Made by a program: the position numbers and the translations under genes. Below, piece after piece: positions 740-48,421 of a stretch of 52,642 nt of DNA. The DNA is taken from assembly GCF_944393015.1 (NCBI RefSeq), contig NZ_CALXYQ010000021.1, positions 1 through 52,642 of the forward strand, in the 5' to 3' direction. A model generated the notes under the pieces. The model searched no databases, was not told the DNA's origin, and saw only the letters and a list, made by a program, of their open reading frames with translations. This stretch comes from an uncultured Brachyspira sp. (GTDB lineage: Bacteria > Spirochaetota > Brachyspiria > Brachyspirales > Brachyspiraceae). Positions within the stretch are counted from its first letter, which is position 1, and each line of letters begins with the position of its first letter.

Positions 740-1444
740 ATGAACAAAATAAAAAAACTATCATTAGTATTTCTTTTCATATTAGCAGCTAATATGAAAG
801 TATTTGCAGAAAGCGGTTTTGAAGCAGCTTTAAGTGTACCATTAGGAGCATCTTTCGGTATATTTACAGGAGAAATTACTACAACCGGTATAGCTCCAGC
901 AATTAATTCAGAAATAGGATTTGATTCAGGAGTGCATGCTCAAATAGGGTATATGTTTGATTTCGGCGGTTTTGGATTAAGCCTTTTAGGTGATTTGGGA
1001 TATAGTTATGATAGCTACAGATATTCACTTTCAATAAGTGGTTTTGGTAATGAAATGAAGCTATATCGAAATTTATATTTACATAGTTTCCAGTTGGGAG
1101 TTCTTCCTAAATTTAACTTTGGAAACTTTGCATTAGGAATAGGCGGAGGTGTAAAAATACCTATATCGGGTACTATTGAAATGAAAGAAACATATAATGG
1201 TTCAGAAAGTAATAATCAAAAAACAGATTATAAATCTTCTTATTTTGGTTCAAATATCATAGGATATATTAAAGCTACATTTGATTACTCTTTATTCTTT
1301 ACTGATAATATGGCTTTCGTTTTAGGTGCTTATATAGGATACGATATAGGACTTTCTGACAAAACAGATAAAGATACCAGAGTGGATAGTTTCGATGTAG
1401 GAGCTCAATTAGGATTCAAATTCGGTCCTAGAGTTGGATATTAA
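740..1444 (+). CDS. Secreted beta-barrel-type surface protein, array member 1
   Basis: This 234-residue protein has a clear signal peptide (basic MNKIKK, hydrophobic core, probable cleavage after VFA before ESGFEA). The mature part is rich in Gly, Phe and Tyr in alternating short segments such as GIGGGVKIPISG and ends in aromatic/hydrophobic residues. This is typical of small outer-membrane beta-barrels. It is the first of six tandem paralogues sharing the ESGFEA start, a LGYSYDSY-like motif, an HS(F/I)(Q/K)(L/I)G(L/V)LPKFN motif and a DYS-FF segment. AAGGAG lies 11 nt upstream and a terminator follows. An outer-membrane location is inferred; no specific function is recognised. I do not equate it with the known Brachyspira Vsp proteins. 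Confidence 0.8.
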   Translation: MNKIKKLSLVFLFILAANMKVFAESGFEAALSVPLGASFGIFTGEITTTGIAPAINSEIGFDSGVHAQIGYMFDFGGFGLSLLGDLGYSYDSYRYSLSISGFGNEMKLYRNLYLHSFQLGVLPKFNFGNFALGIGGGVKIPISGTIEMKETYNGSESNNQKTDYKSSYFGSNIIGYIKATFDYSLFFTDNMAFVLGAYIGYDIGLSDKTDKDTRVDSFDVGAQLGFKFGPRVGY

Positions 1445-1468
1445 TATTTGATTTTATTTACTGAATAA

Positions 1469-1500
1469 AAAGTCTGCTGATTTTTATATCGGCGGACTTT
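1469..1500 (+). terminator. Intrinsic terminator after array member 1
   Basis: AAAGTCTGCTGA (1469-1480) pairs with TCGGCGGACTTT (1489-1500), with two G-T pairs and an 8-nt loop, followed by a T-rich tail. It separates member 1 from member 2, so these are probably separate transcripts. Confidence 0.7.
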
Positions 1501-1540
1501 TATTTTATGGTTTTATATATTAGTTATATTGGGTTTATTT

Positions 1541-2278
1541 ATGAAGAATATAAAGAAAATATTATTAATTATTATCATTATGACATTTAATATAAAGTTA
1601 TTTGCCGAAAGCGGTTTTGAAGCAGTATTAAATGTACCTTTAGGGGTTTCCTTAGGAATATTCAATGGCGAGGTTGAGTCAATAGGAAATGAGCCTCAAA
1701 TCAATACTAAAGCAGGATTTGATGCAGGAGTGAATGCTCAGCTTGGTTATATGTTTGCTTTTGGAAAATTCGGATTAAGTGTTTTAGCAGATTTAGGATA
1801 TAGTTATGATAGTTTTAGATATTCAGTATATCATAGTGTTTCAGCATTAGGGGGAAGTGAGGAATATAATATAGAAAATAGTTTGTATTTGCATAGCTTT
1901 CAAATAGGTCTTCTTCCAAAGTTTAATTTCGGTGCATTTTCTTTTGGTATAGGAGGGGGAGTAAAAATACCAATTTCAGGAACAAGAGAAAGTAAAACAA
2001 AAAAAACTATAAATATATTAGGCGATTCAATAAAATCGGAGTATAATATTAAAACAGATTATAAAAAATCAGACTATTTATCATCTGTTATAGGTTATTT
2101 TAAATTTACATTTGATTATTCTTTCTTCTTTACAAGTAAATTAGCTTTCAATTTAGGGGCTTATTTTGCTTATGATATAGGACTATCATATAAAGCATCA
2201 AACTTAAATGAAACATATAGAGTTGATAGTTTTGATATAGGTGTTCAGATTGGTTTGAGATTTGCTCCTAGATTATGA
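1541..2278 (+). CDS. Secreted beta-barrel-type surface protein, array member 2
   Basis: Reading from the ATG at 1541 gives about 245 residues. An upstream in-frame TTG at 1529 is possible but would only add MGLF before the basic signal-peptide start MKNIKKI. The signal peptide probably ends at LFA before ESGFEA. The protein is closest to member 1: it shares the KIPISGTxE segment, the NSLYLHSFQ-like motif and the VDSFDxGxQ end. It carries an extra loop of about 15 residues after the GTRESK segment, the sort of length change expected in an exposed loop. No strong Shine-Dalgarno site precedes either start. The function is not known. Confidence 0.75.
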   Translation: MKNIKKILLIIIIMTFNIKLFAESGFEAVLNVPLGVSLGIFNGEVESIGNEPQINTKAGFDAGVNAQLGYMFAFGKFGLSVLADLGYSYDSFRYSVYHSVSALGGSEEYNIENSLYLHSFQIGLLPKFNFGAFSFGIGGGVKIPISGTRESKTKKTINILGDSIKSEYNIKTDYKKSDYLSSVIGYFKFTFDYSFFFTSKLAFNLGAYFAYDIGLSYKASNLNETYRVDSFDIGVQIGLRFAPRL

Positions 2279-2291
2279 TAGTTAATATTGC

Positions 2292-2320
2292 TTGATATTT
2301 TTCTTATATTTTAATATACT
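2292..2320 (+). promoter_or_regulatory. Promoter before array member 3
   Basis: TTGATA (2292-2297), 17 bp, TATACT (2315-2320). The same promoter block recurs before member 5 (3886-3913) and again, without a gene, after member 6 (near 5493). Confidence 0.6.
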
Positions 2321-2350
2321 ATAAAATGTATCTTTTAGGAGATAATTATA

Positions 2351-3064
2351 ATGAAAAAGATTCCATTGATTATTGCCTTTATTCTTCTGGTTAATATAAA
2401 ATCTTTTGCTATAAATAGTTTCGTAGCTATACTTAATGTTCCTGTAGGATTATCTGTATGTATTGCTGATGGATTGATTTTGGGAAAACCTCTTACTAAA
2501 TTAGGATTAAATACTGGAGTTAATGCTAAATTGGGATATATGTTTGATTTAGGCAGTATTGGAATTACTCCTTTGTTTGAATTGGGATATAGTTATGATA
2601 CTTATGGAGCTGTTTCATTTAATGAAACTAAATTTGTTGGAAGCCTTATAAGACAGTCTTTAGATATGACTTTAATAACACATAGTCTTCAAATAGGAAT
2701 TATACCTCAAATTAATATAGGAAATTTTGCGATAGGTATCGGATTCGGATTAAAAATTCCATTAGCTGCTGAATTAGAATATAGAAGAATAAAATCCGAT
2801 TATAATAAAATAGAAGTATCAGAACATAATAAAGATAAACTAAATAGAAAAGATATAGAAAATACTTACAGCATAAATGTAATACCATATATAAAACTCA
2901 GTTTTGATTACAATTTATTTTTCACAGAAGAATTAGCTGTTACTATAGGGGCATATTTAGGATATGATTTCGGACTGCCTATAAAAGAAATATCTCAGAA
3001 TGTAAGATTGGATAGTTTGGATATAACTGCTCAGGTAGGGCTTAGATATAACAGTATACTATGA
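2351..3064 (+). CDS. Secreted beta-barrel-type surface protein, array member 3
   Basis: This 237-residue protein has a signal peptide (MKKIPLIIAFILLVNIKSFA). The mature N-terminus INSFVAILNVPVGLSVC is typical of the sub-family it shares with member 5. AGGAGA sits 8 nt before the ATG and a promoter block precedes it. It is far closer to member 5 (positions 3942-4655) than to its neighbours, as shown by the shared NKDKLNRKDIE-type segment and the SQNxRLDSLDITAQVGLRY end. It is therefore the first half of a duplicated two-gene unit. A beta-barrel is inferred from the short alternating aromatic/glycine segments; the ligand or role is unknown. Confidence 0.78.
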   Translation: MKKIPLIIAFILLVNIKSFAINSFVAILNVPVGLSVCIADGLILGKPLTKLGLNTGVNAKLGYMFDLGSIGITPLFELGYSYDTYGAVSFNETKFVGSLIRQSLDMTLITHSLQIGIIPQINIGNFAIGIGFGLKIPLAAELEYRRIKSDYNKIEVSEHNKDKLNRKDIENTYSINVIPYIKLSFDYNLFFTEELAVTIGAYLGYDFGLPIKEISQNVRLDSLDITAQVGLRYNSIL

Positions 3065-3103
3065 AAACTGATACTGTATTTTTTATTTTAGGATTTTGAT
3101 TCT

Positions 3104-3856
3104 ATGAAAAAAATAAATAATTTTGTATTGATAATTTTCATTTTAATACTTTCAAATATTCATGTTTTTGCTGAAAGCGGATTTGAAGCTATAATTGATG
3201 TGCCTATAGGTGCTTCTATTACTATGTGTTTTGGTACCCCTGATTTTAATTTAGGCAATAATAATGTTATTAAGATACAAGAAATAAATGGTAAGGTAAA
3301 TGCAAGTGCTGGAATAGACGTTAAACTTGGATATTTATTTGATATATATGAGGATATAGGAATAAGTACTTTAGCTGAAATAGGATATAGTTACAATTCT
3401 TATACTACGGTAATTCATATAAAAGATGAATCAGGAGAAAAGCTTGATGATAATATAACTAAAAATATAAGAACCCATAGTATAAAAATAGGATTACTGC
3501 CTAAATTTAATAAAGGAAATTTTTCTTTGGGTTTAGGATTTGGAATCAAGGTGCCTTTATATGCAATTGTGGCAAGAGAAAATTTATATTTTAATATAGA
3601 AAAACCTTATTATAACAAAAGTCAGTTCATAGAAGAACTCAATTTTACAGGTATAAAGGATAATTATGAAATACCTATAATACCTTATATTAAACTTACA
3701 GCAGATTATTCTATTTTCTTTGTTGAGGATATAGCTTTCAATATAGGAGCTTATTTTAATTATGATTTTGGTTTGCAGACTAAAGGTACTGATTTCAGAT
3801 TAGACGGATTAGAGTTCGGTTTTCAATTAGGATTAAGATTCGCCCCTATACTATAA
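3104..3856 (+). CDS. Secreted beta-barrel-type surface protein, array member 4
   Basis: This 250-residue protein has a signal peptide (MKKINNFVLIIFILIL, cleavage probably after VFA) followed by ESGFEAIIDVPIGAS. It pairs with member 6: both share the KINASAG(I/V)DVKLGYLF-type block, the TKN(I/V)RTHSIKIGLLPKFNKGNFS segment and the EFGFQLGLRFAP end. It lies only 39 nt after member 3 with no terminator or strong promoter between, so members 3 and 4 probably form one transcript. A weak AGGA lies about 12 nt before the ATG. It is probably an outer-membrane protein; the role is unknown. Confidence 0.78.
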   Translation: MKKINNFVLIIFILILSNIHVFAESGFEAIIDVPIGASITMCFGTPDFNLGNNNVIKIQEINGKVNASAGIDVKLGYLFDIYEDIGISTLAEIGYSYNSYTTVIHIKDESGEKLDDNITKNIRTHSIKIGLLPKFNKGNFSLGLGFGIKVPLYAIVARENLYFNIEKPYYNKSQFIEELNFTGIKDNYEIPIIPYIKLTADYSIFFVEDIAFNIGAYFNYDFGLQTKGTDFRLDGLEFGFQLGLRFAPIL

Positions 3857-3885
3857 AATAAAAAATATATTAATTTTAATATAAC

Positions 3886-3913
3886 TTGATATTTTTTTAT
3901 ATTTTAATATACT
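3886..3913 (+). promoter_or_regulatory. Promoter before array member 5
   Basis: TTGATA (3886-3891), 16 bp, TATACT (3908-3913), in the same sequence context as the promoter at 2292-2320. It marks the start of the second copy of the two-gene unit. Confidence 0.6.
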
Positions 3914-3941
3914 ATAGACTGTATTTTAGGAGACGATTATA

Positions 3942-4655
3942 ATGAAAAATATTATATTGATTATTGCATTTATATTTCTAGTTAGTATAAAATCATTTGC
4001 TGAAAATAGTTTTGTAGCTATACTTAATGTGCCAGTAGGATTGTCAGTATGTATTGGCGATGGATTAATTTTGGCAGAACCTCTTAATAAAATAGGCATC
4101 AATACCGGGGTTAATACTAAATTAGGATATATGTTTGATTTAGGCAAGATTGGAATTACTCCTTTGTTTGAATTAGGCTATAGCTATGATAGTTATGGGT
4201 TTGGTTCATTTGGAGAAAGTAGATTTTTAGGAAAGGTATCAAGACAGTCTGTAGATTTGTCTTTAAGAACACATAGCTTTCAAATAGGAATTATGCCTCA
4301 AATTAATATAGAAAATTTTGCAATAGGTCTTGGATTTGGATTAAAAATTCCATTGGCTGCTGAATATGAATTTAAAAGAACAGGTTCCCGTAATAATGAC
4401 CGTGAAATAGTAGAAAATATAAAAGCTAAACTAAATAGAAAAGATATAGAAGATACTTACAGCAGAAATATAATACCATATCTAAAACTCAGTTTTGATT
4501 ACAATTTCTTTTTCACAGAAAAGTTTGCTGTTGTGGTTGGGGCATATTTAGGATATGACTTTGGATTACCTGTAGCTGGATCATCTCAGAATATAAGATT
4601 GGATAGTTTGGATATAACTGCTCAGGTAGGACTTAGATACGGCAGCAAATTGTAA
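3942..4655 (+). CDS. Secreted beta-barrel-type surface protein, array member 5
   Basis: This 237-residue protein has the same length as member 3 and is its duplicate. The signal peptide MKNIILIIAFIFLVSIKSFA is followed by ENSFVAILNVPVGLSVCIGDG. Differences from member 3 cluster around residues 80-95 and 140-160, where the charged loop differs. This is consistent with exposed loops changing after duplication. An AGGAGA site precedes the ATG. The start-to-start distance between members 3 and 5 is 1,591 bp. It is probably in a transcript with member 6, 50 nt downstream. Confidence 0.78.
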   Translation: MKNIILIIAFIFLVSIKSFAENSFVAILNVPVGLSVCIGDGLILAEPLNKIGINTGVNTKLGYMFDLGKIGITPLFELGYSYDSYGFGSFGESRFLGKVSRQSVDLSLRTHSFQIGIMPQINIENFAIGLGFGLKIPLAAEYEFKRTGSRNNDREIVENIKAKLNRKDIEDTYSRNIIPYLKLSFDYNFFFTEKFAVVVGAYLGYDFGLPVAGSSQNIRLDSLDITAQVGLRYGSKL

Positions 4656-4705
4656 AATATAAAGACTTATACTATATGTTAATTTTGTTATTAGGATTTT
4701 AATTT

Positions 4706-5467
4706 ATGAAAAAAATAAATAATTTTATATTGATAATTTTTATTTTAATGATATCAAATATTAATGTTTTTGCTGATAGCGGATTTGAAGCTATAATTGA
4801 TATGCCTATAGGGGCTTCTTTTACTATACCTATTGGAAAACCTAATATTGATGTTTATGGGGATAATTTTTCTATTAAGAGGGGAGATGTTATCGGTAAA
4901 ATAAATGCAAGTGCTGGAGTAGATGTAAAGCTTGGATATTTATTTAATATATATGATGATATGGGTATAAGTGCTTTGGCTGAAATAGGATATCATTATA
5001 ATTCTTATACATCAATAATGCGTATAGAAGGGGAAGGATTTGATCTTTCGGATACTTTAACTAAAAATGTAAGAACTCATAGTATAAAAATAGGGCTGCT
5101 TCCTAAATTTAATAAAGGAAATTTTTCTTTTGGTTTAGGATTTGGCGTTAAAATTCCTTTATTGGCAATTTTTTCAACTGAATATGCATATCTAAATGCA
5201 ACCGAAGTCGGAGAAACATATAGCAAAAATCAGAAAATAGAGAATTTTAATTTTGAAGATATAAAAAATAGTAAAGTAATACCTGTAATACCCTATATTA
5301 AACTTACAGCAGATTATTCTTTTTTCTTTGTTGATAATATAGCTTTTAATTTGGGAGTTCATATAAACTATGATTTTGGACTTCAACAGAAAGATTCAAA
5401 TTTTAGAGAAGATGCAATAGAGTTCGGTTTTCAATTAGGATTAAGATTTGCTCCTAAGTTAGAATAA
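4706..5467 (+). CDS. Secreted beta-barrel-type surface protein, array member 6
   Basis: This 253-residue protein is the duplicate of member 4 (start-to-start distance 1,602 bp). The signal peptide MKKINNFILIIFILMISNINVFA is followed by DSGFEAIIDMPIGASF. The conserved barrel-like blocks match member 4, while the region around residues 35-55 and the loop near residues 155-185 differ in sequence and length. It is the last gene of the array. After its stop the promoter block that precedes members 3 and 5 appears once more, but is followed by a tRNA gene and not by another copy. Confidence 0.78.
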   Translation: MKKINNFILIIFILMISNINVFADSGFEAIIDMPIGASFTIPIGKPNIDVYGDNFSIKRGDVIGKINASAGVDVKLGYLFNIYDDMGISALAEIGYHYNSYTSIMRIEGEGFDLSDTLTKNVRTHSIKIGLLPKFNKGNFSFGLGFGVKIPLLAIFSTEYAYLNATEVGETYSKNQKIENFNFEDIKNSKVIPVIPYIKLTADYSFFFVDNIAFNLGVHINYDFGLQQKDSNFREDAIEFGFQLGLRFAPKLE

Positions 5468-8300: not shown

Positions 8301-8399
8301 GTTTGGGCGGGTGCTGTAATTTCTTTTTAAATTAAATAAGAAAATAAATACTAAAATGACAAAATAAAGCAGAAAGCATAGAGGGCGGGGAATTAGAAT
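8301..8399. repeat. Module A' (inverted A) intergenic element
   Basis: An inverted copy of module A runs from TTGGGCGGGTGC to GAGGGCGGGGAATTAGAAT with an AT-rich middle. It fills most of the gap between the divergent ATPase and VWA genes. No coding sequence is seen in this gap. Confidence 0.75.
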
Positions 8400-8422
8400 A
8401 GTATTTTAAAGCATAAAAAAAT

Positions 8423-9668: not shown

Positions 9669-10211
9669 TAATTACATTTGCCCGCCCTTTATATTTAAAG
9701 TTTTAATCTACAATATAAACTTTTATTTTATTATTTTCTTAATTAGAATTTCTTGCTGCCCCCCAAGCGGATTTTAAATTTGTTATGTATTTACCGCACG
9801 GGAGACAAAGCTAAAAATATAGATTCATTTTTAATTCAGATTTTTTTATATTTTAGAATTTAATTAAACGTGCGTTGATAAGATTTTAAAATAAAAAAAT
9901 ACTTGGGTGGGTGCTTTATTTTCTGATTAGGCTTTAAATATAATTGATTTTTATATTTAAAAAGTATAGCAATAAATTTTAAAGGGTGGGGTATGAAATT
10001 TAATTACATTCGCCCGCCCTTTATATTTAAAGTTTCAATCTGCAGTATAAACTTTTATTTTTTTATTTGCTTAATTAGAATTTTTAGCTGCCCGCCCAAG
10101 CGGATTTTAAATTTATTGTGTACACAACGCACGTATAATAAAATTAAAAATATATGTCTAATTATAATTATGAATTAAACAATAAATAAAAATCAGCTTA
10201 CCGTGCGATTA
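9669..10211. repeat. Composite element A-B-A'-A-B
   Basis: This fills the 610-bp gap between the convergent VWA and lipoprotein genes. A at 9669-9770 (GCCCGCCC to CCCCCCAAGCGG); B at 9791-9876 (ACCGCACG to ACGTGCG); A' at 9901-9995 (CTTGGGTGGGTGC to AGGGTGGGG); A at 10001-10103; B at 10126-10211 (ACGCACG to ACCGTGCGATTA). The right end of the last B supplies the stop codon of the leftward lipoprotein gene. The only ORF inside is a repeat artefact. Confidence 0.8.
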
Positions 10212-10604
10212 ACTAATTTTTGAAAGTTTTCCTTCTGATGTTGTATTATCAGTATTGTTGATTGTTAAATTCATGTAAGTATCATAAAAAGCAAAAGAAT
10301 ATTTTTTTCCTTCTTTATCTGCTGTGTATGAAGCATCTCCAGCTTTAGTTAATTCTTCTTTTGCTATGGTTACTCTACTGTTACGTATATTTCCGCCTTC
10401 TATGATGATTTCTATGGAACTATCTTCATTAACAATTAAAGTGCATTTATTTGTTTCAAGCTGTCTAGTATTTTGTGTAGTTATTAAAGTTCCTTCATAT
10501 CTAGCTGTTTCTTTTAGATTTTCTATAGGATCATTTTTATTTCCGCAGCTTAAAATAAATAAAAATATAAAAGATACACTTAGAATTTTAATACAATGTT
10601 TCAT
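10209..10604 (-). CDS. Small lipoprotein of unknown function
   Basis: This 131-residue protein has a lipoprotein signal peptide (MKHCIKILSVSFIFLFILSC), with the lipobox LFILSC placing the lipidated Cys at about residue 20. The mature part is hydrophilic and resembles a small beta-rich domain of the kind that measures as a single lipocalin-like sheet, with TKAGDASYTADKEGKKYSF near the C-terminal end; no family is recognised. AGGGG lies upstream of the ATG. Its TAA stop codon falls inside the CGTGCGATTA end of a module B element, so the C-terminus may have been set by element insertion. Confidence 0.7.
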   Translation of the reverse strand: MKHCIKILSVSFIFLFILSCGNKNDPIENLKETARYEGTLITTQNTRQLETNKCTLIVNEDSSIEIIIEGGNIRNSRVTIAKEELTKAGDASYTADKEGKKYSFAFYDTYMNLTINNTDNTTSEGKLSKIS

Positions 10605-13632: not shown

Positions 13633-13840
13633 TAATTACATTTGCCCGCCCTTTAGGTATGTAAATTTATTTTGTTATTTTTATTTTATTTTTCTTGATA
13701 GTTTTTCATTTAATTATAACGCCCACCCAAGCGTTTTTTAAATTTAAAATTCACATACCGCACGCAGAATAATATTTAAAATATAGATAGATTTATAATT
13801 TTAATCTTTATTATATATAGAGCTTAGTTAAGCGTGCGTA
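13633..13840. repeat. Composite element A-B upstream of the TPR gene
   Basis: A runs from ATTACATTTGCCCGCCC (13633) to GCCCACCCAAGCG (about 13733). B runs from ATACCGCACGCAGAAT (about 13756) to AAGCGTGCG (about 13838). It lies between a leftward gene and the rightward TPR gene, i.e. in a divergent gap, so it is not a simple terminator. Confidence 0.8.
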
Positions 13841-13919: not shown

Positions 13920-14721
13920 ATGTCAGTTGTTAATGATAATGATTCTGGTAGGGATTCAGAATATTATTTTGATAGGGCAAATATTTTTTCTCTTGAAGGA
14001 AAATATGAAGAAGCCATAGTATATTATAATAAAGCTATAGAGTTAGACCCAAATTATACTGATGCTTATAACGGCAGAGGAAAAGCTAAAAATGATTTAG
14101 GTAAATATGAAGACTCTATTAAAGATTTTAATAAAGTAATAGAATTAACCCCTAATTATACTAATGCTTATTATGACAGAGGAAATGCTAAAAAAATTAG
14201 GTAAATATGAAGAAGCTATTAAAGACTATGATAAGGCTATAGAGTTGTACCCTAATTATAGTGCTGCTTATAATAACAGAGGAAGTGTTAAAGTTGATTT
14301 AGGTGAATATGAAGAAGCTATTAAAGACTATGATATGGCTATAGAGTTAGACTCTGATTACAGTGATGCTTATAATAACAGAGGAATTGTTAAAAATGTT
14401 TTAGGTAAATATGAAGACTCTATTAAAGATTTTAATAAAGTAATAGAATTAAACCCTAATGATAGTGATGCTTATTATAATAGAGGAAGTGTTAAAGATG
14501 TTTTAGGTAAATATGAAGAAGCTATTAAAGACTATGATAAGGCTATAGAGTTAAACCCTAATAATGGAGCTTTTTATAATAACAGAGGAGTATCTAAAGA
14601 AAATTTAGAGGAGTACAATGAAGCTTTAAAAGATTATAAAAAGGCTTTGGAATTAGACCCTAACTATGATATTGCTAGAGAAAATATAAAAGAGATTCAA
14701 GATAAATATGGCTTGAAATAA
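13920..14721 (+). pseudogene. TPR-repeat protein, frameshifted in an A7 tract
   Basis: Two overlapping frames (13920-14204 and 14164-14721) together encode about 266 residues of six to seven near-identical 34-residue TPRs, with the consensus LGKYEEAIKDYDKAIELNPN. Frame 1 ends at IR-stop just after AYYDRGNAKK. Frame 2 takes over in register at LGKYEEAIKDYDKAIEL. The break is at a run of seven A residues (14190-14196); six A's would restore one reading frame. The TPR that corresponds in the preceding repeat reads AKNDLGKYED, supporting a 2-bp net loss or 1-bp gain. It could be a real pseudogene, a slippage-switched gene or a sequence error. It is flanked on both sides by A/B elements. Confidence 0.8.
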
Positions 14722-14723
14722 AC

Positions 14724-15275
14724 TTTACGCACGGTGAATAAAACCTAAAAAATTAACTGCATTATCAATGGAAATTTATTAAATAATTAAAATTCGTTAA
14801 TCGTGCGTTAAATGGATTTTAAATTTAAGCATCACTTGGGTGGGTGTGCTTTTTATTATCAAGTTATTAATATAATTAAAGTTAAAATTTGAAAAATATA
14901 CTATAAAGAATAAAGGGTGGGTATGTAAATAAAGTTTTAAAATTTAATTTACACTTGCCCGCCCTTTAGGTTCTTTAATTCTTATAAGGTTTCAAATAAA
15001 ATATATTTTGGCACTTTTGCAACTTTTGCTGCGGGAAAAGTTGATAAAAAATAAGTTTAAAATTTTATTTACATACCCCGCCCTCTAGGCTTTTTAATTT
15101 ATATTGTTATTTTTGCTTTGTATTTTCTTTCTGTTTAAACTAGAAATTACAGCACCCGCCCAAGTTTTTTTAAAAATTGTAAAGAATATACCACACATGT
15201 TAATGGGATTAAAAATATATGTTTATGGATAATGGTGATTTAAATTATATATTTAAGCCTATTTACCGTGCGTTT
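14724..15275. repeat. Composite element B-A'-A-(hairpin C)-A-B
   Basis: This fills the 680-bp gap before murA. B at 14724-14811 (TTACGCACGG to ATCGTGCGTTA); A' at 14831-14930; a truncated A left end at 14945-14980; hairpin repeat C at 15012-15055 (CAACTTTTGCTGCGGGAAAAGTTG); a complete A at 15065-15166 (CCCCGCCC to ACCCGCCCAAG); a degenerate B at 15188-15275 (ACCACACATG to ACCGTGCG). Repeat C appears to have landed within or next to an A copy. No gene is seen. Confidence 0.75.
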
Positions 15276-30863: not shown

Positions 30864-31727
30864 ATGATGGATAATGATTATAAAAGTATAAAATATTTTA
30901 ATACATTAAATGATTATTTTGTTAGATATCTTTTTTCTGATAAAGGAAGCGAGGCAATATTATTGGATTTTATTAATTCAATAATGCTTGACTCTGGAAT
31001 GAAGACTTTTAGAAGTGTAGAAATACTTACTCCTTTTAATTATAAGGAAAATTATGAAGATAAAGAAATCATAACAGATGTAAAATGTATAACTCAAAAT
31101 GGTTCAGTTGTTATAATAGAGATTCAGCTTCAAGGTAATTCAAGGTTTCCAGAGCGCATACTTTATTATTGGTCTTATAATTACAGTAAACTTTTAAAGC
31201 AGGGTGAAAAGTATGATGCTCTAACTCCTGTAATAAGTATTAATCTTCTTAATTTTAATTTAGATGATTCAGCAAATATTCATTCCTGTTATATGATTTA
31301 TGATACAGTTAATCAAAGATTATTAACAGACCATTTACAAATACATATAATTGAAGTGAAAAAATTTAAATGCAATTTATTAAAACCAGATTTAGATTGC
31401 TGGCTTAAATTTTTTACTATGAAAGAAAATGATAATAAGGAGGCTATTATGTCAGAAATAGTAAAAGAAAAACCTATAATGGAAGAAGTGCAAAGAAGAT
31501 ATAATAACTTCATTAAAGACAGACTAATGATGAATGAATATGATAAAAGACAAGTATATTTATATGGAAATCAAATAATGCTTGAAGAAGAGCGAAGACT
31601 AGGAATTGAAGAAGGTGAAAAAAACAAAGCAATATCTATAGCTAGTAATTTAAAAAAAGCCGGCATCGATATAAAAATAATTAGTGAAAATACAGGATTG
31701 AGTATAGAAGAAATAGAAAAATTGTAA
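30864..31727 (+). CDS. Rpn-family PD-(D/E)XK nuclease, copy 1
   Basis: This 287-residue protein belongs to the Rpn/PDDEXK_2 family, often labelled recombination-promoting nuclease or putative transposase. The nuclease core is D72 in ITDVKC and E86-I87-Q88 in VVIIEIQL, the family's D...ExQ active site. The opening YFNTLNDYFVRYLF motif and the middle YYWSYNYSKLLKQGEKY block are typical. A helical C-terminal part ends in a charged IEEGEKNKAISIASNLKKAG coil. Rpn proteins cut DNA and have been linked to recombination and, in some cases, phage resistance. No Shine-Dalgarno site exists. A second copy is at 44742-45596 on the other strand. Confidence 0.85.
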   Translation: MMDNDYKSIKYFNTLNDYFVRYLFSDKGSEAILLDFINSIMLDSGMKTFRSVEILTPFNYKENYEDKEIITDVKCITQNGSVVIIEIQLQGNSRFPERILYYWSYNYSKLLKQGEKYDALTPVISINLLNFNLDDSANIHSCYMIYDTVNQRLLTDHLQIHIIEVKKFKCNLLKPDLDCWLKFFTMKENDNKEAIMSEIVKEKPIMEEVQRRYNNFIKDRLMMNEYDKRQVYLYGNQIMLEEERRLGIEEGEKNKAISIASNLKKAGIDIKIISENTGLSIEEIEKL

Positions 31728-32787: not shown

Positions 32788-33171
32788 TGAAGATAAAGTC
32801 TGGGATATTAAATAGCGGCAAAGATTGATTATATTTGTAACTATTCCTAAATAAATAAATTTTATGTGCTTTTGCAACTTTGACGAAGTCCGCAGAGCGT
32901 ATGCCATGAAAAAGTTGATAAAAAATAAGTTTAAAATTTTTTATTTATATATACTTTCATCTAAACTTTTATATTTTATTCTAAAATTAGAATTTTAATA
33001 AAGATAAAAAATTTAAATGTCTGGGTTTGGGAATGAATCTTTTCTAATTCCCCGCCATTTATATTTTTTTTCTTTATTCTGTTATTTTTGTTTTTTATTT
33101 CTTTATTGTTTTAAAATAAATGTTAATGCCCGCCCGAGTTTTATTTAAATTTATAATGCATTCACCGCACG
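32788..33171. repeat. Roughly 380-bp direct repeat, left copy (partner at 46403-46781)
   Basis: The stretch from TGAAGATAAAGTCTGGG to CACCGCACG is nearly identical to 46403-46781. It includes the last codons of the small membrane-protein gene at 46167 (DKVWDIK-stop, at about 32794-32814), the C-type hairpin at 32868-32930, and module A. Similarity ends inside the left terminal repeat of module B. The two copies are in the same orientation, 13.6 kb apart. Confidence 0.85.
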
Positions 33172-33600
33172 TAGAATATTATTATATTATTAAGTATATT
33201 TATCAATTACAATTATCATTATATATAGAATTTTACTTACCCTGCGTTAATAAAAATTAATAGTCTAATAACATCTAGGGTGGGTATTAAAATAGCAGTG
33301 TAAAATAATAAAATAAAATATCATAAAAATAACAGTTAAGATTTTAAATGTAGAGGGTGGGGAGTTAGAATAAAATTTTGTTTTTAAATCTTTTCTAATT
33401 CCCGCCCTTTATGTTTTATTGCCTTATTCTGTTATTTCTATTTTTTGTTCCTTTATTGTTTAAAAAGAAATGTTAACGCCCACCCAAGCGATTTTTAAAT
33501 TTAAAATCTATTTAACGCACGATTAATGAATTTTAATTGTATGTGTAAATTATAATTAAGGATTATTTTATATTGTTAATTTTATTTAGCGTGCGGTATA
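33042..33600. repeat. Composite element A-B-A'-A-B before bgl cassette 1
   Basis: A at 33042-33140; B at 33161-33250 (CACCGCACG to ACCCTGCGTTA, one mismatch); A' at 33270-33370; A at 33389-33490; B at 33511-33598 (AACGCACG to AGCGTGCGG). A' and the following A form a large inverted repeat around TTAGAATAAAATTTTG. Bases 33352-33600 are read as identical to 38597-38845. No gene lies in the 32.8-33.7 kb gap. Confidence 0.85.
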
Positions 33601-34870: not shown

Positions 34871-38244
<3,374 letters not shown>

Positions 38245-38410: not shown

Positions 38411-38845
38411 AAGTTTATCGTTAGCAATAATAAAAATAAACTTATTTAAAATCATAATTTAAACTATATTAAAAAATTTATTTACCGTGCGTTAATAAAA
38501 ATTAATAGTCTAATAACAGCTTGGGTTGGTATTAAAATAACAGAGCGAAATAACAAAATAAAATATATTAAAAATAACAGTTAATATTTTAAATTTAGAG
38601 GGTGGGGAGTTAGAATAAAATTTTGTTTTTAAATCTTTTCTAATTCCCGCCCTTTATGTTTTATTGCCTTATTCTGTTATTTCTATTTTTTGTTCCTTTA
38701 TTGTTTAAAAAGAAATGTTAACGCCCACCCAAGCGATTTTTAAATTTAAAATCTATTTAACGCACGATTAATGAATTTTAATTGTATGTGTAAATTATAA
38801 TTAAGGATTATTTTATATTGTTAATTTTATTTAGCGTGCGGTATA
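38411..38845. repeat. Composite element (partial B)-A'-A-B after bgl cassette 1
   Basis: A left-truncated B ends at 38493 (ACCGTGCGTTA). A' at 38515-38615 starts with a variant TTGGGTTGG. A is at 38635-38736 and B at 38757-38844. Bases 38597-38845 are read as identical to 33352-33600 (249 bp, same orientation), so bgl cassette 1 lies between perfect direct repeats. The rest of the 38245-39005 gap is AT-rich and appears empty apart from the terminator hairpins. Confidence 0.85.
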
Positions 38846-39458: not shown

Positions 39459-39500
39459 TATTAAAATATTTTAATGATTTTATAATAAAGCTTGAAAAAT

Positions 39501-39633
39501 TAATTACATCTGCCCGCCCAAGCGATTTTTAAATTTAAAATCTATTTAACGCACGATTAATGAAATTTAATTATATGATTAAATTATAATGAAAAATTGT
39601 ATTATATTATTAATTTTATTCAACGTGCGGTAT
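39501..39633. repeat. Collapsed module A plus module B
   Basis: A is reduced to ATTACATCTGCCCGCCCAAGCG (39501-39524): the left flank of A is joined directly to its right flank with one CCCGCCC retained, as expected if the two short terminal repeats of A had recombined. B follows at 39545-39633 (AACGCACG to AACGTGCGG) and diverges in the interior from the B at 38757. No gene is seen in the 39459-39738 gap. Confidence 0.75.
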
Positions 39634-40822: not shown

Positions 40823-42778
<1,956 letters not shown>

Positions 42779-44363: not shown

Positions 44364-44397
44364 TATAAAAGCGAGATTTTTTATATATAAATAAAAT

Positions 44398-44436
44398 AAG
44401 AAAGTTATAGCTTCTAATGGTGAGGACTTAGATTGA
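44398..44436 (+). pseudogene. Orphan 3' tail of a third GH1 gene
   Basis: This reads [12 protein letters not shown]-stop in frame and nearly matches the last codons of the GH1 gene that ends at 44244 (GGTGAG for GGCGAG, GAT for GAC). It is not part of any longer open frame. It begins directly after the terminator hairpin, and the sequence changes to module B just after its stop. I read it as what remains after deletion of a third GH1 copy. Confidence 0.8.
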
Positions 44437-44450
44437 TTATAATTTAAACT

Positions 44451-44690
44451 ATCACGCACGGTGTGTGAAATTTAAAATATAAGCTTATTTCAAATTATAA
44501 TTTAAACTATATAAAAAAATACATTTACCGTGCGTTAATAAAAATTTTCAATATAATAACAGCTTGGGTGGGTATTAAAATAACAGTGTAAAATAACAAA
44601 ATAAAATATATAAAAATAGCAGTTAAGATTTTAAATTTAGAGGGTGGGAGTTAGAATAAAATTTTGTTTTTAAATCTTTTCTAATTTCCC
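44451..44690. repeat. Composite element B-A'-(truncated A)
   Basis: B at 44451-44536 (CACGCACGG to ACCGTGCGTTA); A' at 44561-44658 (GCTTGGGTGGG to GAGGGTGGGAGTTAGAAT); then the start of A, cut off at about 44680 (TTTCTAATTTCCC). It is placed between the convergent GH1 and Rpn genes; no gene is present in 44437-44741. Confidence 0.8.
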
Positions 44691-44741: not shown

Positions 44742-45596
44742 TCATAATTTTTTTATTTCTTCTATAGTCAAACCTGTATATTTAGAAATAATATTAATAT
44801 CAACTTTATCATCTTTCATTTGTTTTGCTATAGAAGTTTGTCCTTCTTTTATACCTTTTTGCATTCCTTCTTCTATTCCCTTTATACGCTCCTCATTAAG
44901 CATTAAAACATTAAAATAATCTCTTTCATAATTACTATAGCCATTATATAAATCATTACTTTTTACAAATTTGTTATATTCTTCATATACTTCTTTCATT
45001 ATAGGATTTTTCTTTACTAATATTTCCATAGTATCCTCCAATTTATCTTTCGAATTTAAAAACTCAAACCAATCTGATAAACCTTCATATAAATTATAAG
45101 AATTACTAAATTTCCTAAGCTCTAGAAAATGAAGCTCTAAATGATTAGTTAATATATGATTAGTTTCTAACTCTTTAATAAAATAACAGCTATGAGGCTT
45201 ATCTATACCTTTTATCAAATTAAAATCAAGAATATTAATACTTATTACAGGTGTTAAATCTGAATATATATCCTTAGATTTTAAATTTGTAAAATAATTT
45301 TTAGCCCAATAGTATAAACTTCTATATATAAATGACTGATTACCTATTCTTTGTATTTCTATAATTATAGTTTCGCCTGATTTCGTTTTTGCTTTAACAT
45401 CTGCTATTGATTCTTTATCAAATACATTTTCTTTTAGATTAAAAGTATTTAAAACTTCTATATATTCAAAAGGCTCTTGATTAGAATCTATCCTAACAGA
45501 ATTAATAAGATTTTTAAGTATATGCTCATGTCCTTCTTTAGCAAACATATAACGCATAAAATAATCATTCAAAACATTAAAATACTTTCCACTCAT
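44742..45596 (-). CDS. Rpn-family PD-(D/E)XK nuclease, copy 2
   Basis: This 284-residue paralogue of the gene at 30864 has the start YFNVLNDYFMRYMFAK and active-site residues D66 (IADVKAK) and E80-I81-Q82 (TIIIEIQR). A conserved SLYYWAKNYFTNLKS block and a C-terminal charged helix follow (IEEGMQKGIKEGQTSIAKQM). The last 20 residues, ending YTGLTIEEIKKL, are close to copy 1's (NTGLSIEEIEKL). It belongs to the family of recombination-associated nucleases, related to some mobile-element proteins. The ATG is 6 nt from a perfect -10 box and has no Shine-Dalgarno site. It is flanked by A/B elements on both sides, with no recognisable inverted-repeat ends of its own. Confidence 0.85.
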   Translation of the reverse strand: MSGKYFNVLNDYFMRYMFAKEGHEHILKNLINSVRIDSNQEPFEYIEVLNTFNLKENVFDKESIADVKAKTKSGETIIIEIQRIGNQSFIYRSLYYWAKNYFTNLKSKDIYSDLTPVISINILDFNLIKGIDKPHSCYFIKELETNHILTNHLELHFLELRKFSNSYNLYEGLSDWFEFLNSKDKLEDTMEILVKKNPIMKEVYEEYNKFVKSNDLYNGYSNYERDYFNVLMLNEERIKGIEEGMQKGIKEGQTSIAKQMKDDKVDINIISKYTGLTIEEIKKL

Positions 45597-45639: not shown

Positions 45640-46020
45640 TTTTGATTTATTTTATTCTGTTATTTTTGTTTTTTGGTTGTTAAAAATAAATTTTAATGCC
45701 CCAAGTTTTGTTTAAATTTATAATGCATTCACCGCACGCAGAATATTATTATATTATTAAGTATATTTATTAATTACAATTATCATTATATATAAAATTT
45801 TACTTACCGTGCGTTAATAAAAATTTTCAATATAATAACCGCTTGGGTGGGTATTAGAATAACAGAGTAAAATAACAAAATAAAATATAACAAAAATAAC
45901 AGTTAAGATTCTAAATTTAGAGGGTGGGGAGTTAGAATAAAATTTGTTTTTTTAATCTTTTCTAATTTCCAGCCCTTTATATTTTATTGCTTTATTCTGT
46001 TACTTTTATTTTATATTTTT
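45640..46020. repeat. Composite element (partial A)-B-A'-(partial A)
   Basis: A right part ends GCCCCAAG (about 45700). B at 45728-45815 (CACCGCACG to ACCGTGCGTTA) closely matches the B at 33161-33250. A' at 45838-45940 (GCTTGGGTGGG to GAGGGTGGGGAGTTAGAAT). A left part at 45955-46015 has no right end. It lies in a divergent gap between Rpn copy 2 and the next rightward gene. No gene is present in 45632-46166. Confidence 0.75.
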
Positions 46021-46430: not shown

Positions 46431-46781
46431 CGGCAAAGATTGATTATATTTGTAACTATTCTTAAATAATTTTATGTGCTTTTGCAACTTTGACGAAGTC
46501 CGCAGAGCGTATGCCATGAAAAAGTTGATAAAAAATAAGTTAAAAATTTTTTATTTATATATACTTTCATCTAAACTTTTATATTTTATTCTAAAATTAG
46601 AATTTTAATAAAGGGAAAAAATTTAAATGTCTGGGTTTGGGAATGAATCTTTTCTAATTCCCCGCCCTTTATATTTTTTTTCTTTATTCTGTTATTTTTG
46701 TTTTTTATTTCTTTATTGTTTTAAAATAAATGTTAATGCCCGCCCGAGTTTTATTTAAATTTATAATGCATTCACCGCACG
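46403..46781. repeat. Roughly 380-bp direct repeat, right copy
   Basis: Partner of 32788-33171: it includes the gene's own 3' end, the C-type hairpin at 46480-46541 (CAACTTT...AAAGTTG with the GACGAAGTCCGCAGAGCG loop) and a module A at about 46655-46755. Similarity stops at CACCGCACG, the left end of module B. Confidence 0.85.
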
Positions 46782-46858
46782 ATAAACAAAATTAAAAAAT
46801 ATTATTTTCACTTAAATATAATTTTTATTATATTTATTGATTTACTTATCGTGCGTTA
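46655..46858. repeat. Composite element A-B overlapping a stop codon
   Basis: A at 46655-46755 (TTCCCCGCCC to GCCCGCCCGAG); B at 46772-46858 (CACCGCACG to ATCGTGCGTTA). The last three bases, TTA, are the reverse complement of the TAA stop codon of the leftward gene at 46856-48421. Confidence 0.8.
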
Positions 46859-48421
46859 TATAATTTCATAATCATCATCTACATTAAAACCTAAATTTAC
46901 TTCAAGATTTTCTAACTTTTGATTTTTCTTTTCATAGTCAGCTTTAATCTGAGAATATATATTGTATCCTGCACTCATATTTATAAATCTTAAATATATA
47001 TCATTTTCCTTGCCGTTAAATGCTCCTTCTCTAAAAAGTTCAAATAGATAATTATTGATTAAATGATATGTATAAAGCTGGGTTTTGTATACAGAACAAT
47101 TTTTTTGAGATGACTGAAAATTGAAATTAACAATCTCTCCGGAATGAAGCTCATTATAAAATTCATTGTCAGCACATATTTCAGGTAAGAATAAAAATAA
47201 ATCACTTGCAAGACTATAATCCTTTGTAAGCTCTTCTGCCAAATTTCCTAATTTATCATATGACTCTTCAGATTCTTTTAAATTTAAAACTATATTTGAA
47301 TATTCTCGAATAAATTTTAAAATCTCATCATTACTGAATGGGTAAGGAGTGTAAGTTTCATTATCCTGTACTAAAAAGAAAAACTGCTTGTCTGATGAAA
47401 AATCTGTTTCATTCCAAGTTTTAACATATTCATTCATTTTGTCGGCAAGCACTGGTATATTAACATCATTGATTCTAAGCTCTCCTATAGAATAATCATT
47501 ACCTGCCTTAGCTCCATATATTTTAATGTAGCATATTTTTTGATTTCCTATTCTTTTTAAAATATCATCTTTGAACATGTCCCAATAAATATTTACATTT
47601 TTAGGCTTTCCATTATCGCCGCCCATATTAACTAAATTACTTGTATAAACTTTCCATTTATGTTTTTTACCGGCAAATTCAGTTTCTACTTCATCAAGTA
47701 TTCTGTTTTCATTCATCGCTTTTATGCCTGTCATTATACCGAATATGAAACTTCCATTTGAAAGCCCTACAGAAGTATTGGCATCTTTTCCAGCACTGGC
47801 ACAGCATTCAAATATATCTCTGTCCCAATCAGGACTTGATATATAATAGTTTATAACTGCACTTTTATCTGTTATAGTATCAGGATAAGCATTTATAAAT
47901 ATATTCCATTTTTTTATAACAATACTTCCCTCTATTATTTCATTATCTATATCATTTGATAAAATAGATGATATATCTTTTATGATAGAATCAGGATCAT
48001 CAATATTAACTGCATTAGCTTCATAATGCATACTTCCGCCTTGTATATATTCTTTTAAATTATTATATAAATTGTTGTAATAATCATATTCTTCATTGCT
48101 TATTAAAGATTTGTTCATTTCTAATGTATACAATGCTCTGTCTATATTTAAATTGGCATTGCTCATATCAGATTTTCCTGAATATGCATAGGCAATTTTA
48201 TAAAACCAAGTATGATGGCTTTTGGTTTCTTCGGATAAAGAATTTAATATTTCTATTGCTAGGTCAAATTCTCCAGTATTATTATATGCTACAGCAAGCT
48301 GCCCTTTAATATCATCATTTAATTGTTCTTCAGGTAAGGAGAGTATTAATTCAATAATTCCTCTATGATTTCCTTCTTCATATAATTTGTGAAATTGTAA
48401 ATCTAATTCTTCATTATTCAT
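46856..48421 (-). CDS. TPR-like protein of unknown function
   Basis: This 521-residue cytoplasmic protein has no signal peptide. The N-terminus (1-130) contains two to three TPR-like repeats (AVAYNNTGEFDLAIEILNSL, WFYKIAYAYSGKSDMSNANLN). The C-terminal part (about 150-500) has long alpha/beta regions with INYYISSPDWDRDIFECCAS and conserved-looking Trp/Tyr clusters. I do not recognise it securely; it may belong to a TPR-plus-DUF family. AAGGAT lies before the ATG. Its stop codon lies in a module B end, and the final residues DDDYEII precede it. Confidence 0.65.
   Translation of the reverse strand: MNNEELDLQFHKLYEEGNHRGIIELILSLPEEQLNDDIKGQLAVAYNNTGEFDLAIEILNSLSEETKSHHTWFYKIAYAYSGKSDMSNANLNIDRALYTLEMNKSLISNEEYDYYNNLYNNLKEYIQGGSMHYEANAVNIDDPDSIIKDISSILSNDIDNEIIEGSIVIKKWNIFINAYPDTITDKSAVINYYISSPDWDRDIFECCASAGKDANTSVGLSNGSFIFGIMTGIKAMNENRILDEVETEFAGKKHKWKVYTSNLVNMGGDNGKPKNVNIYWDMFKDDILKRIGNQKICYIKIYGAKAGNDYSIGELRINDVNIPVLADKMNEYVKTWNETDFSSDKQFFFLVQDNETYTPYPFSNDEILKFIREYSNIVLNLKESEESYDKLGNLAEELTKDYSLASDLFLFLPEICADNEFYNELHSGEIVNFNFQSSQKNCSVYKTQLYTYHLINNYLFELFREGAFNGKENDIYLRFINMSAGYNIYSQIKADYEKKNQKLENLEVNLGFNVDDDYEII

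What the first reader, a model, noticed from the sequence alone, without database searches (positions are those of the whole stretch)
33352..33490. A' followed by A forms a long inverted repeat with G-tracts at its ends
In A'-A pairs the outer GGGTGGGG and CCCGCCC tracts and the AGTTAGAA/TTCTAATT segments are complementary around TAAAATTTTG. This could fold as a large hairpin in DNA or RNA. It recurs at 9.97, 14.92, 33.37, 38.61, 44.65 and 45.94 kb. The repeated order suggests the pair, not the single module, is the functional or mobile unit.
Basis: partly seen in the sequence, partly recalled or inferred. Interest (0 to 1): 0.5.

Follow-up and report, generated by a model that had tools for sequence, protein, structure and literature searches.

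The report
Brachyspira-only mosaic repeat near chromosome terminus
The "long hairpin" is part of a large repeat found between genes of Brachyspira gut spirochaetes; its short G/C motifs sit at strictly fixed distances, are preserved in place, and cluster in the chromosome half far from the replication origin, so it looks like a DNA landmark rather than an RNA hairpin.

Summary
The inverted pair exists, but it is a fragment of a larger unit. A half-module reads: I box (CCCGCCCTTTA) - about 77 nt - O box (CCCRCCCAAG) - 37 nt - K dyad (CGCACG - 73/74 nt - CGTGCG). The strict K-dyad pattern occurs 135 times in this genome. The O-K pattern is in 23 of 26 Brachyspira genomes and 0 of 366 other sampled genomes of the phylum. 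None of 271 O-K sites lies well inside a long ORF, and sites hug gene 3' ends. In two relatives, 50 of 52 and 44 of 49 loci lie in the origin-distal half; in the one sampled for it, non-coding space is equal in both halves. Between orthologous copies, G/C columns in boxes are 91-95% identical (spacers 53%). Stem positions do not covary and G.U is not preferred over A.C, so an RNA hairpin is not supported. Best reading: a genus-specific, BIME-like DNA element without a Y1/RAYT transposase, probably a protein-binding platform for chromosome organisation. The binding protein is unknown.

The parts
33129..33246 (+). O box CCCGCCCGAG (33129-33138) and K dyad CGCACG...CCTGCG (33166-33246, right end degenerate); left-hand half-module of the 33 kb array, whose I box (about 33050) is degenerate (CCCCGCCATTTA)
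33275..33284 (-). O box of the left arm (CTAGGGTGGG, degenerate)
   Evidence: sequence; position from the ~77 nt rule
33351..33411 (.).
33479..33488 (+). O box CCCACCCAAG of the right arm, 77 nt from the I box
33516..33595 (.). K dyad CGCACG-74-CGTGCG closing the 33 kb element
9682..10207 (.). array: I(9682) [O 9759 degenerate] K(9795-9874) O-(9902) I-(9980) I+(10014) O+(10091) K(10128-10207); ends 1 nt from the stop codon of ORF 10209-10604(-)
13646..13838 (+). single half-module I(13646) O(13722) K(13759-13838), no partner across the I centre
14728..15272 (.). K(14728-14807) O-(14835) I-(14911) I+(14959), then a second right half I+(15078) O+(15155) K (left end degenerate, right end 15267-15272)
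8303..8416 (-). single half-module in reverse orientation (I box at 8379)
38486..38840 (.). K right end (38486) O-(38520, CTTGGGTTGG) I-(38596) I+(38647) O+(38724) K(38761-38840); sister of the 33 kb copy
39484..39629 (+). half-module in which the I box and O box are fused (77-nt spacer missing), O box 39513, K 39550-39629
44455..44690 (.). left half K(44455-44534) O-(44563) I-(44638), interrupted in the right I box next to the PDDEXK_2 gene 44742-45596(-)
45640..46020 (.). right half (O box ~45699 degenerate) K(45733-45813) O-(45842) I-(45918) and a damaged right I box
46644..46855 (+). right half I(46662) O(46739) K(46776-46855), touching the stop codon of ORF 46856-48421(-)

Best explanation
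It is a genus-specific composite extragenic DNA element that works like an enterobacterial BIME. Two diverged half-modules (a: boxes CCCACCC, K end CGCACGCAG; b: boxes CCCGCCC, K end CGCACGGT) alternate in orientation around two dyads, giving a polar array with a period of about 345 bp. Shown: the boxes and their spacing, not base pairing, are what is kept; boxes are kept in place between species; elements avoid genes, favour gene 3' ends and are concentrated in the origin-distal part of the chromosome. Inferred: one or more dimeric DNA-binding proteins (a nucleoid or terminus-domain protein, or gyrase as for BIME-2) read the I, O and K boxes as spaced half-sites and fold the DNA into a compact complex that organises the terminus-side chromosome and/or absorbs supercoils at gene ends. 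The array varies by recombination between copies, which also captures or loses genes.
For: Geometry: I-O 75-78 in 224 of 243, O-K 37-38 in 258 of 279, K+ to K- 73-75 in 214 of 241 (each dyad once); tandem copies 342-347 apart. The strict O-K pattern is in 23 of 26 Brachyspira and 0 of 366 other genomes sampled; the K dyad is in 23 of 26, 22-137 copies in each of those, with 0 control hits. 0 of 271 O-K sites well inside ORFs over 150 aa, with 72% of the sequence in such ORFs. Gene-end bias: convergent 54 of 182 element gaps against 20 of 267 other gaps; within 30 nt of a stop in 60 of 201 but of a start in 4 of 163. Origin-distal: 50 of 52 loci in G004 and 44 of 49 in G007; in G004 sampled non-coding DNA is equal in the halves (16.4 vs 16.5 kb) but K dyads are 1 vs 11; accessory PDDEXK_2 genes are not so biased (6 of 22 in G004, 9 of 19 in G007; positions). 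In-place constraint: columns with G/C 91% (I), 95% (O), 91% (K) identical against 53% in spacers and 62% in flanks; I+K above spacer in 18 of 22 orthologous pairs. No covariation.
Against: No binding protein was identified and nothing was measured. Three Brachyspira genomes (G001, G003, G020) lack both patterns, so it is not essential to the genus. 4 of 22 orthologous pairs do not show the box excess, and 14 boxes (I 2, O 4, K 8) are intact in only one of the two sequences against 79 in both. Box conservation could partly come from gene conversion between copies. The arms do share a palindromic consensus (shuffling arm spacers weakens the fold from -52.1 to -45.9). The peak lies at 0.58-0.61 of the circle clockwise from dnaA rather than at 0.5, and the real terminus was not located. 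Orientation shows no replichore bias. Gyrase binding is pure analogy.
Confidence: 0.5

Rival explanations
1. It is a non-autonomous transposable element (MITE-like), spread by an unknown transposase that binds the K ends; its intergenic and gene-end location only reflects where insertion does no harm.
For: High copy number; sites filled in one species and empty in another (L130/L148, L060/L129, L102/L036); copy-number variation such as one unit in L093 and two in L099; CGCACG/CGTGCG at many outer ends.
Against: No target duplication seen at the three filled/empty pairs, which are too diverged to be decisive. Ends vary (K, I centre or O linker). Boxes are constrained in place after insertion. 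No Y1 transposase in 26 genomes; other transposases were not surveyed.
Confidence: 0.28
2. It is a transcribed RNA hairpin (3' UTR stabiliser or bidirectional terminator).
For: Window copy folds with z -6.6 as RNA; I centre hairpin is followed by TTTA; proximity to stop codons; fixed G.U in the I box on one strand; the G.U strand folds better than its complement (-52.1 vs -46.6).
Against: No covariation in the arms, the I centre or K; G.U not favoured over A.C (210 vs 198); the G.U strand is only weakly tied to gene direction (between co-directional genes: inner pairs TG 11, CA 4, GG 1; outer pairs TG 5, CA 4, TA 4); in several loci read by eye the gene has its own hairpin-plus-T terminator before the element; no Rfam family at gathering score over the elements (two weak microRNA hits far below cut-off).
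Confidence: 0.1
3. It is a recombination landing pad whose main role is exchange of gene cassettes.
For: A variable-surface-protein gene sits between element copies in L120 where L074 and L043 have one uninterrupted element; the PDDEXK_2 gene at 44742-45596 and a small ORF near 46.2 kb interrupt the array in the window, whereas L091, which has a 95% identical first PTS operon, carries one uninterrupted element after it.
Against: No integrase or att core was tied to it; ordinary homologous recombination between repeats explains these cases; the L085 deletion lies between two GGGTGGG direct repeats. PDDEXK_2 copy number does not follow element number: G001 has 25 genes and no K dyad, G018 has 1 gene and 35 K dyads.
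Confidence: 0.12

Closest known systems
BIME / REP elements of enterobacteria (BIME-2 with alternating Y and Z units)
   Same: Extragenic, often over 100 copies, palindromic units in alternating orientation, two unlike unit types paired, tandem arrays. PMC2817692 (abstract and passages seen) says BIME-2 arrays bind gyrase and BIME-1 binds IHF. A bias to gene 3' ends is recalled for REPs.
   Different: REPs are 20-40 bp (PMC3733652, abstract and passages seen). Here the K dyad is 80 bp, the repeat unit about 345 bp, and spacers have fixed lengths. No Y1 transposase (RAYT) in 26 genomes.
MITEs such as Correia or RUP elements (recalled)
   Same: Short, non-coding, high-copy, intergenic, inverted-repeat character.
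   Different: No constant ends or target duplication shown; alternating arrays with shared K dyads; boxes constrained in place.
matS sites of the Ter macrodomain (MatP system)
   Same: Copies concentrated on the terminus side of the chromosome.
   Different: matS is a 13-bp target repeated 23 times in 800 kb (PMC3330122, abstract in the search listing); this element is far larger and composite. MatP was not searched for in Brachyspira.
BOX elements of Streptococcus pneumoniae (recalled)
   Same: Mosaic modular intergenic repeat.
   Different: BOX is described as a stem-loop with variable boxB number (recalled); no comparison was run.

Membership tests
REP/BIME | extragenic location | tested here: met
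   0 of 271 O-K sites well inside ORFs over 150 aa
REP/BIME | palindromic units regularly spaced in alternating orientation | tested here: met
   O-O through K mostly 143-146, through the I centre mostly 197-205; both dyads mostly pair unlike halves: 73 of 86 I centres, 77 of 92 K dyads with both ends typed (225 dyads in all)
REP/BIME | unit of 20-40 bp able to form a stem kept by complementary mutations | tested here: not met
   80-bp K dyad, no covariation
REP/BIME | associated Y1 (RAYT) transposase | tested here: not met
   PF01797 in 0 of 26 genomes; 5 of 14 control genomes ring
MITE | constant terminal inverted repeats | tested here: inconclusive
   CGCACG/CGTGCG at many outer ends, but other ends fall at the I centre or O linker
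MITE | target-site duplication | tested here: inconclusive
   none seen by eye at three filled/empty pairs with 74-88% identical flanks
structured non-coding RNA | compensatory base changes in stems | tested here: not met
structured non-coding RNA | match to an Rfam family | tested here: not met
   only four tRNAs at gathering score in the window
matS/MatP-like domain marker | restricted to the terminus region | tested here: met
   50 of 52 and 44 of 49 loci in the origin-distal half in two genomes; terminus itself not located
matS/MatP-like domain marker | bound by a dedicated protein | not testable with these tools
   needs ChIP or pull-down

The most novel reading that the evidence does not exclude
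A spirochaete terminus-domain system: a lattice of I, O and K half-sites with O-K+ and K+-K- spacings close to 3.5 and 7 helical turns (at 10.5 bp per turn), wrapped by an unknown protein into large nucleoprotein complexes that mark and organise the origin-distal part of the Brachyspira chromosome. It would be an independent solution to what MatP-matS and BIME-gyrase do in enterobacteria.
Probability: 0.22. Interest if true: 0.8.

Novelty: new variant of a known kind. Interest (0 to 1): 0.55.

Why it matters
The repeat is conserved in place, absent from the 366 other genomes of the phylum that were sampled, and concentrated on the terminus side in the two genomes checked, so it gives a defined DNA bait for finding a chromosome-organising factor in a lineage where none is known to me. 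It also explains part of Brachyspira genome plasticity: gene gains and duplications in this window are bounded by its copies. Four searches of the open paper library that paired Brachyspira with repeat, repetitive or intergenic terms, one on recombination and gene transfer, and passages of three Brachyspira genome papers showed no description of it; subscription papers were not searchable.

Tried and rejected
RNA hairpin by covariation: rejected. Mobilisation by PDDEXK_2 (Rpn-like) proteins, suggested by the gene inside the array at 44.7-45.6 kb: rejected as the sole cause, because gene and element numbers do not follow each other. RAYT/REPIN: rejected, no Y1_Tnp. Plasmid or phage origin: one 436-bp query gave no match in the plasmid or phage collections. 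The viral-contig scan gave 74 pattern hits, of which 0 of 74 had the K dyad plus O box, so chance. Replichore orientation bias: none seen. GC skew of G004 from 20 stretches was too scrambled to place the terminus, so dnaA was used; the length of G007 was taken as the rounded 3.1 Mb.

Orthologous pairs: one search printed 146 rows; I picked 26 by hand, one per element pair with gaps of similar size on both sides, leaving out repeat rows, empty sites and rows with a large insert. The first test (26 pairs, each in both directions) gave box 0.869 against spacer 0.800 but included non-orthologous pairs (L068 with L107 and L116; L110 with L117). One search used 24 of these and dropped two (22 kept), but required the query box to be intact, which inflates identity (22 of 22 pairs above spacer). 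One search repeats it on those 22 pairs with boxes taken from either sequence and pattern-selected stretches left out; only one search is used as evidence. In one search the printed K+ to K- distances are 37 too small (script slip). In one search the symmetric counts (K+ to K- 485, O-O 87 and 114) count most pairs once per strand; one search gives them once each (241, 44, 58).

Bias to note: L009-L110 were fetched by an O-K pattern and the G000 stretches were chosen because they hold O boxes, so counts of half-modules and pairs are conditional on that. L001-L006 and L008 (L007 too) were left out of the counts because they repeat the window or other stretches or are short. ORF-based counts rest on simple ORF calling, not on annotation.

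Full report
What was checked. The stretch 33352-33490 reads GGGTGGGG-AGTTAGAATAAAATTTTG...TTCTAATT-CCCGCCCTTTA and ends in the next C-rich box. Its core folds better than shuffled sequence as DNA (z -2.86); a longer stretch does so as RNA on either strand (z -6.6 and -6.0).

Organism. The window is contig C21 of a 3.44-Mb genome with 27% G+C.

Anatomy. Mapping the motifs shows a larger rule: I box (CCCGCCCTTTA), about 77 nt, O box (CCCRCCCAAG), 37 nt, K dyad (CGCACG, 73-74 nt, CGTGCG). Over the loci then fetched, I-O is 75-78 in 224 of 243 and O-K is 37 or 38 in 258 of 279; K+ to K- is 73-75 in 214 of 241 dyads counted once. The spacers are A/T-rich and vary in sequence while keeping their length. 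K is itself an inverted repeat of half-sites (CGCACG...AAATATA) with, typically, one CAG end and one GT end: 77 of 92 K dyads with both ends typed are mixed, out of 225 dyads in all. I centres are also mixed: GGGT faces CCCG (or its complement) in 73 of 86 and 67 of 79 full elements. Half-modules with A boxes tend to carry CAG-type K ends (AA: 39 CAG, 14 GT, 55 other) and those with G boxes GT-type ends (GG: 26 GT, 11 CAG, 23 other); halves with unlike boxes show no such rule (AG 6, 6, 3; GA 6, 13, 24). The array is therefore polar: two diverged inverted halves repeated head to tail, with tandem copies 342-347 bp apart.

The unit. Of 65 I-centred elements with enough flank, 34 had both K dyads complete. 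Of 306 half-modules, 112 had a full partner across the I centre, 47 only a bare box, and 147 none. I-centred (58) and K-centred (44) O-O pairs are both common.

Hairpin test. If the stem mattered, partners should covary. Left and right arms of one element are no more alike than arms of different elements (63.3% vs 64.9%; own partner ranks 38.9 of 67 on average). In the I centre a permutation test gives 2951 of 10000, and position-wise tests give z between -1.4 and 1.1. In K, 88 oriented sequences give z -0.6, and 59 non-redundant ones -1.2. Sixty full elements fold at -52.1 kcal/mol on average; with arms swapped between elements they fold at -53.2. With the arm spacers shuffled and the boxes kept they fold at -45.9, so the arms do share a palindromic consensus, but no pairing is maintained element by element. 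G.T and A.C mismatches are about equal (210, 198). This speaks for conserved DNA sites, not for RNA.

Distribution. The O-K pattern is in 23 of 26 Brachyspira genomes and 0 of 366 others drawn from the phylum, with reversed-pattern controls zero. The K dyad is in 23 of 26 as well, 22-137 copies in each, 135 in the own genome; the same three genomes lack both. No O-K site of 271 lies well inside an ORF over 150 aa, though 72% of the sequence does. Elements are over-represented between convergent genes (54 of 182 element gaps, 20 of 267 other gaps), and their edge lies within 30 nt of a stop codon in 60 of 201 cases but of a start in only 4 of 163. In two relatives (one and two contigs), positions relative to dnaA put 50 of 52 and 44 of 49 loci in the origin-distal half. 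In G004, twenty evenly spaced stretches hold equal non-coding DNA in both halves (16.4 and 16.5 kb) but 1 and 11 K dyads; this was not repeated in G007. PDDEXK_2 genes, as an accessory-gene control, are 6 of 22 and 9 of 19 distal (positions, halves computed by hand).

Conservation in place. For 22 orthologous element pairs with aligned flanks (picked by hand from the rows), taking boxes from either sequence and leaving out pattern-selected stretches, I, O and K boxes are 92.8, 93.1 and 91.5% identical, spacers 84.6%, flanks 79.7%. For columns containing G or C the figures are 91.2, 94.8 and 90.7% against 52.7% and 62.5%. 18 of 22 pairs have I+K above spacer and 4 do not; 79 boxes are intact in both sequences and 14 in one only. 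Gene conversion between copies could contribute.

Dynamics. Relatives show sites with and without the element (L130/L148, L060/L129, L102/L036), one versus two units (L093/L099), loss of the 77-nt spacer between GGGTGGG direct repeats (L085 against L116 and L107), and a variable-surface-protein gene (PF05540, E 8e-97) lying between element copies in L120 where L074 and L043 have one element. In the window the same process separates two operons of a PTS transporter and a family-1 glycosidase and leaves the PDDEXK_2 gene at 44742-45596 between element halves; L091, with a near-identical first PTS operon (95% over 6 kb), has a single uninterrupted element after it. Ordinary recombination between repeats suffices; no transposase was tied to the element, and Y1_Tnp is absent from all 26 genomes.

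Reading. The best explanation is a BIME-like, genus-specific DNA element that serves as a binding platform with fixed geometry, enriched on the terminus side. The protein is inferred, not shown. A MITE-like origin is compatible with the data and is the main rival. Literature: in the passages seen by term, Brachyspira genome papers PMC3532143 (12 of 25 places shown), PMC3163572 (4 of 4) and PMC2650404 (3 of 3) mention no such repeat; BIME facts are from passages of PMC2817692 and PMC3733652; matS from an abstract in a search listing (PMC3330122).

Noticed in passing
window 46468-46600, 32858-33000 and 15013-15060: A second repeat (TTTGCAACTTT...AAAAGTTGATAAAAAATAAGTT, an inverted repeat, seen by eye) lies next to the elements; the 32858-33157 and 46468-46767 copies are 99% identical, a very recent duplication.
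   Followed up: no
window 740-5467: Six ORFs of 234-253 aa in tandem, about 800 bp apart, sharing repeats; no NCBIfam or Pfam match for the first, the only one tested.
   Followed up: partly
window 13921-14721: Gene with 102-bp repeats; the 185-aa ORF at 14164-14721 is TPR repeats, and the repeats continue upstream of it out of frame, so the gene looks frameshifted in this copy.
   Followed up: partly
window 34883-36780: The first PTS transporter appears as two overlapping ORFs (EIIB-EIIC and EIIA), whereas its paralogue at 40823-42778 is one ORF with all three domains; probably a frameshift.
   Followed up: partly
window 44742-45596 and 30864-31727: Two PDDEXK_2 (PF12784) genes; 30 matches in this genome and present in 25 of 26 Brachyspira.
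   Followed up: partly
L120 6989-8197: A variable surface protein gene (PF05540 Serpulina_VSP) sits between two element copies; L074 and L043 lack it at that place.
   Followed up: partly
window 44395-44437: The 3' end of the second family-1 glycosidase gene is duplicated just before the K dyad at 44455.
   Followed up: no
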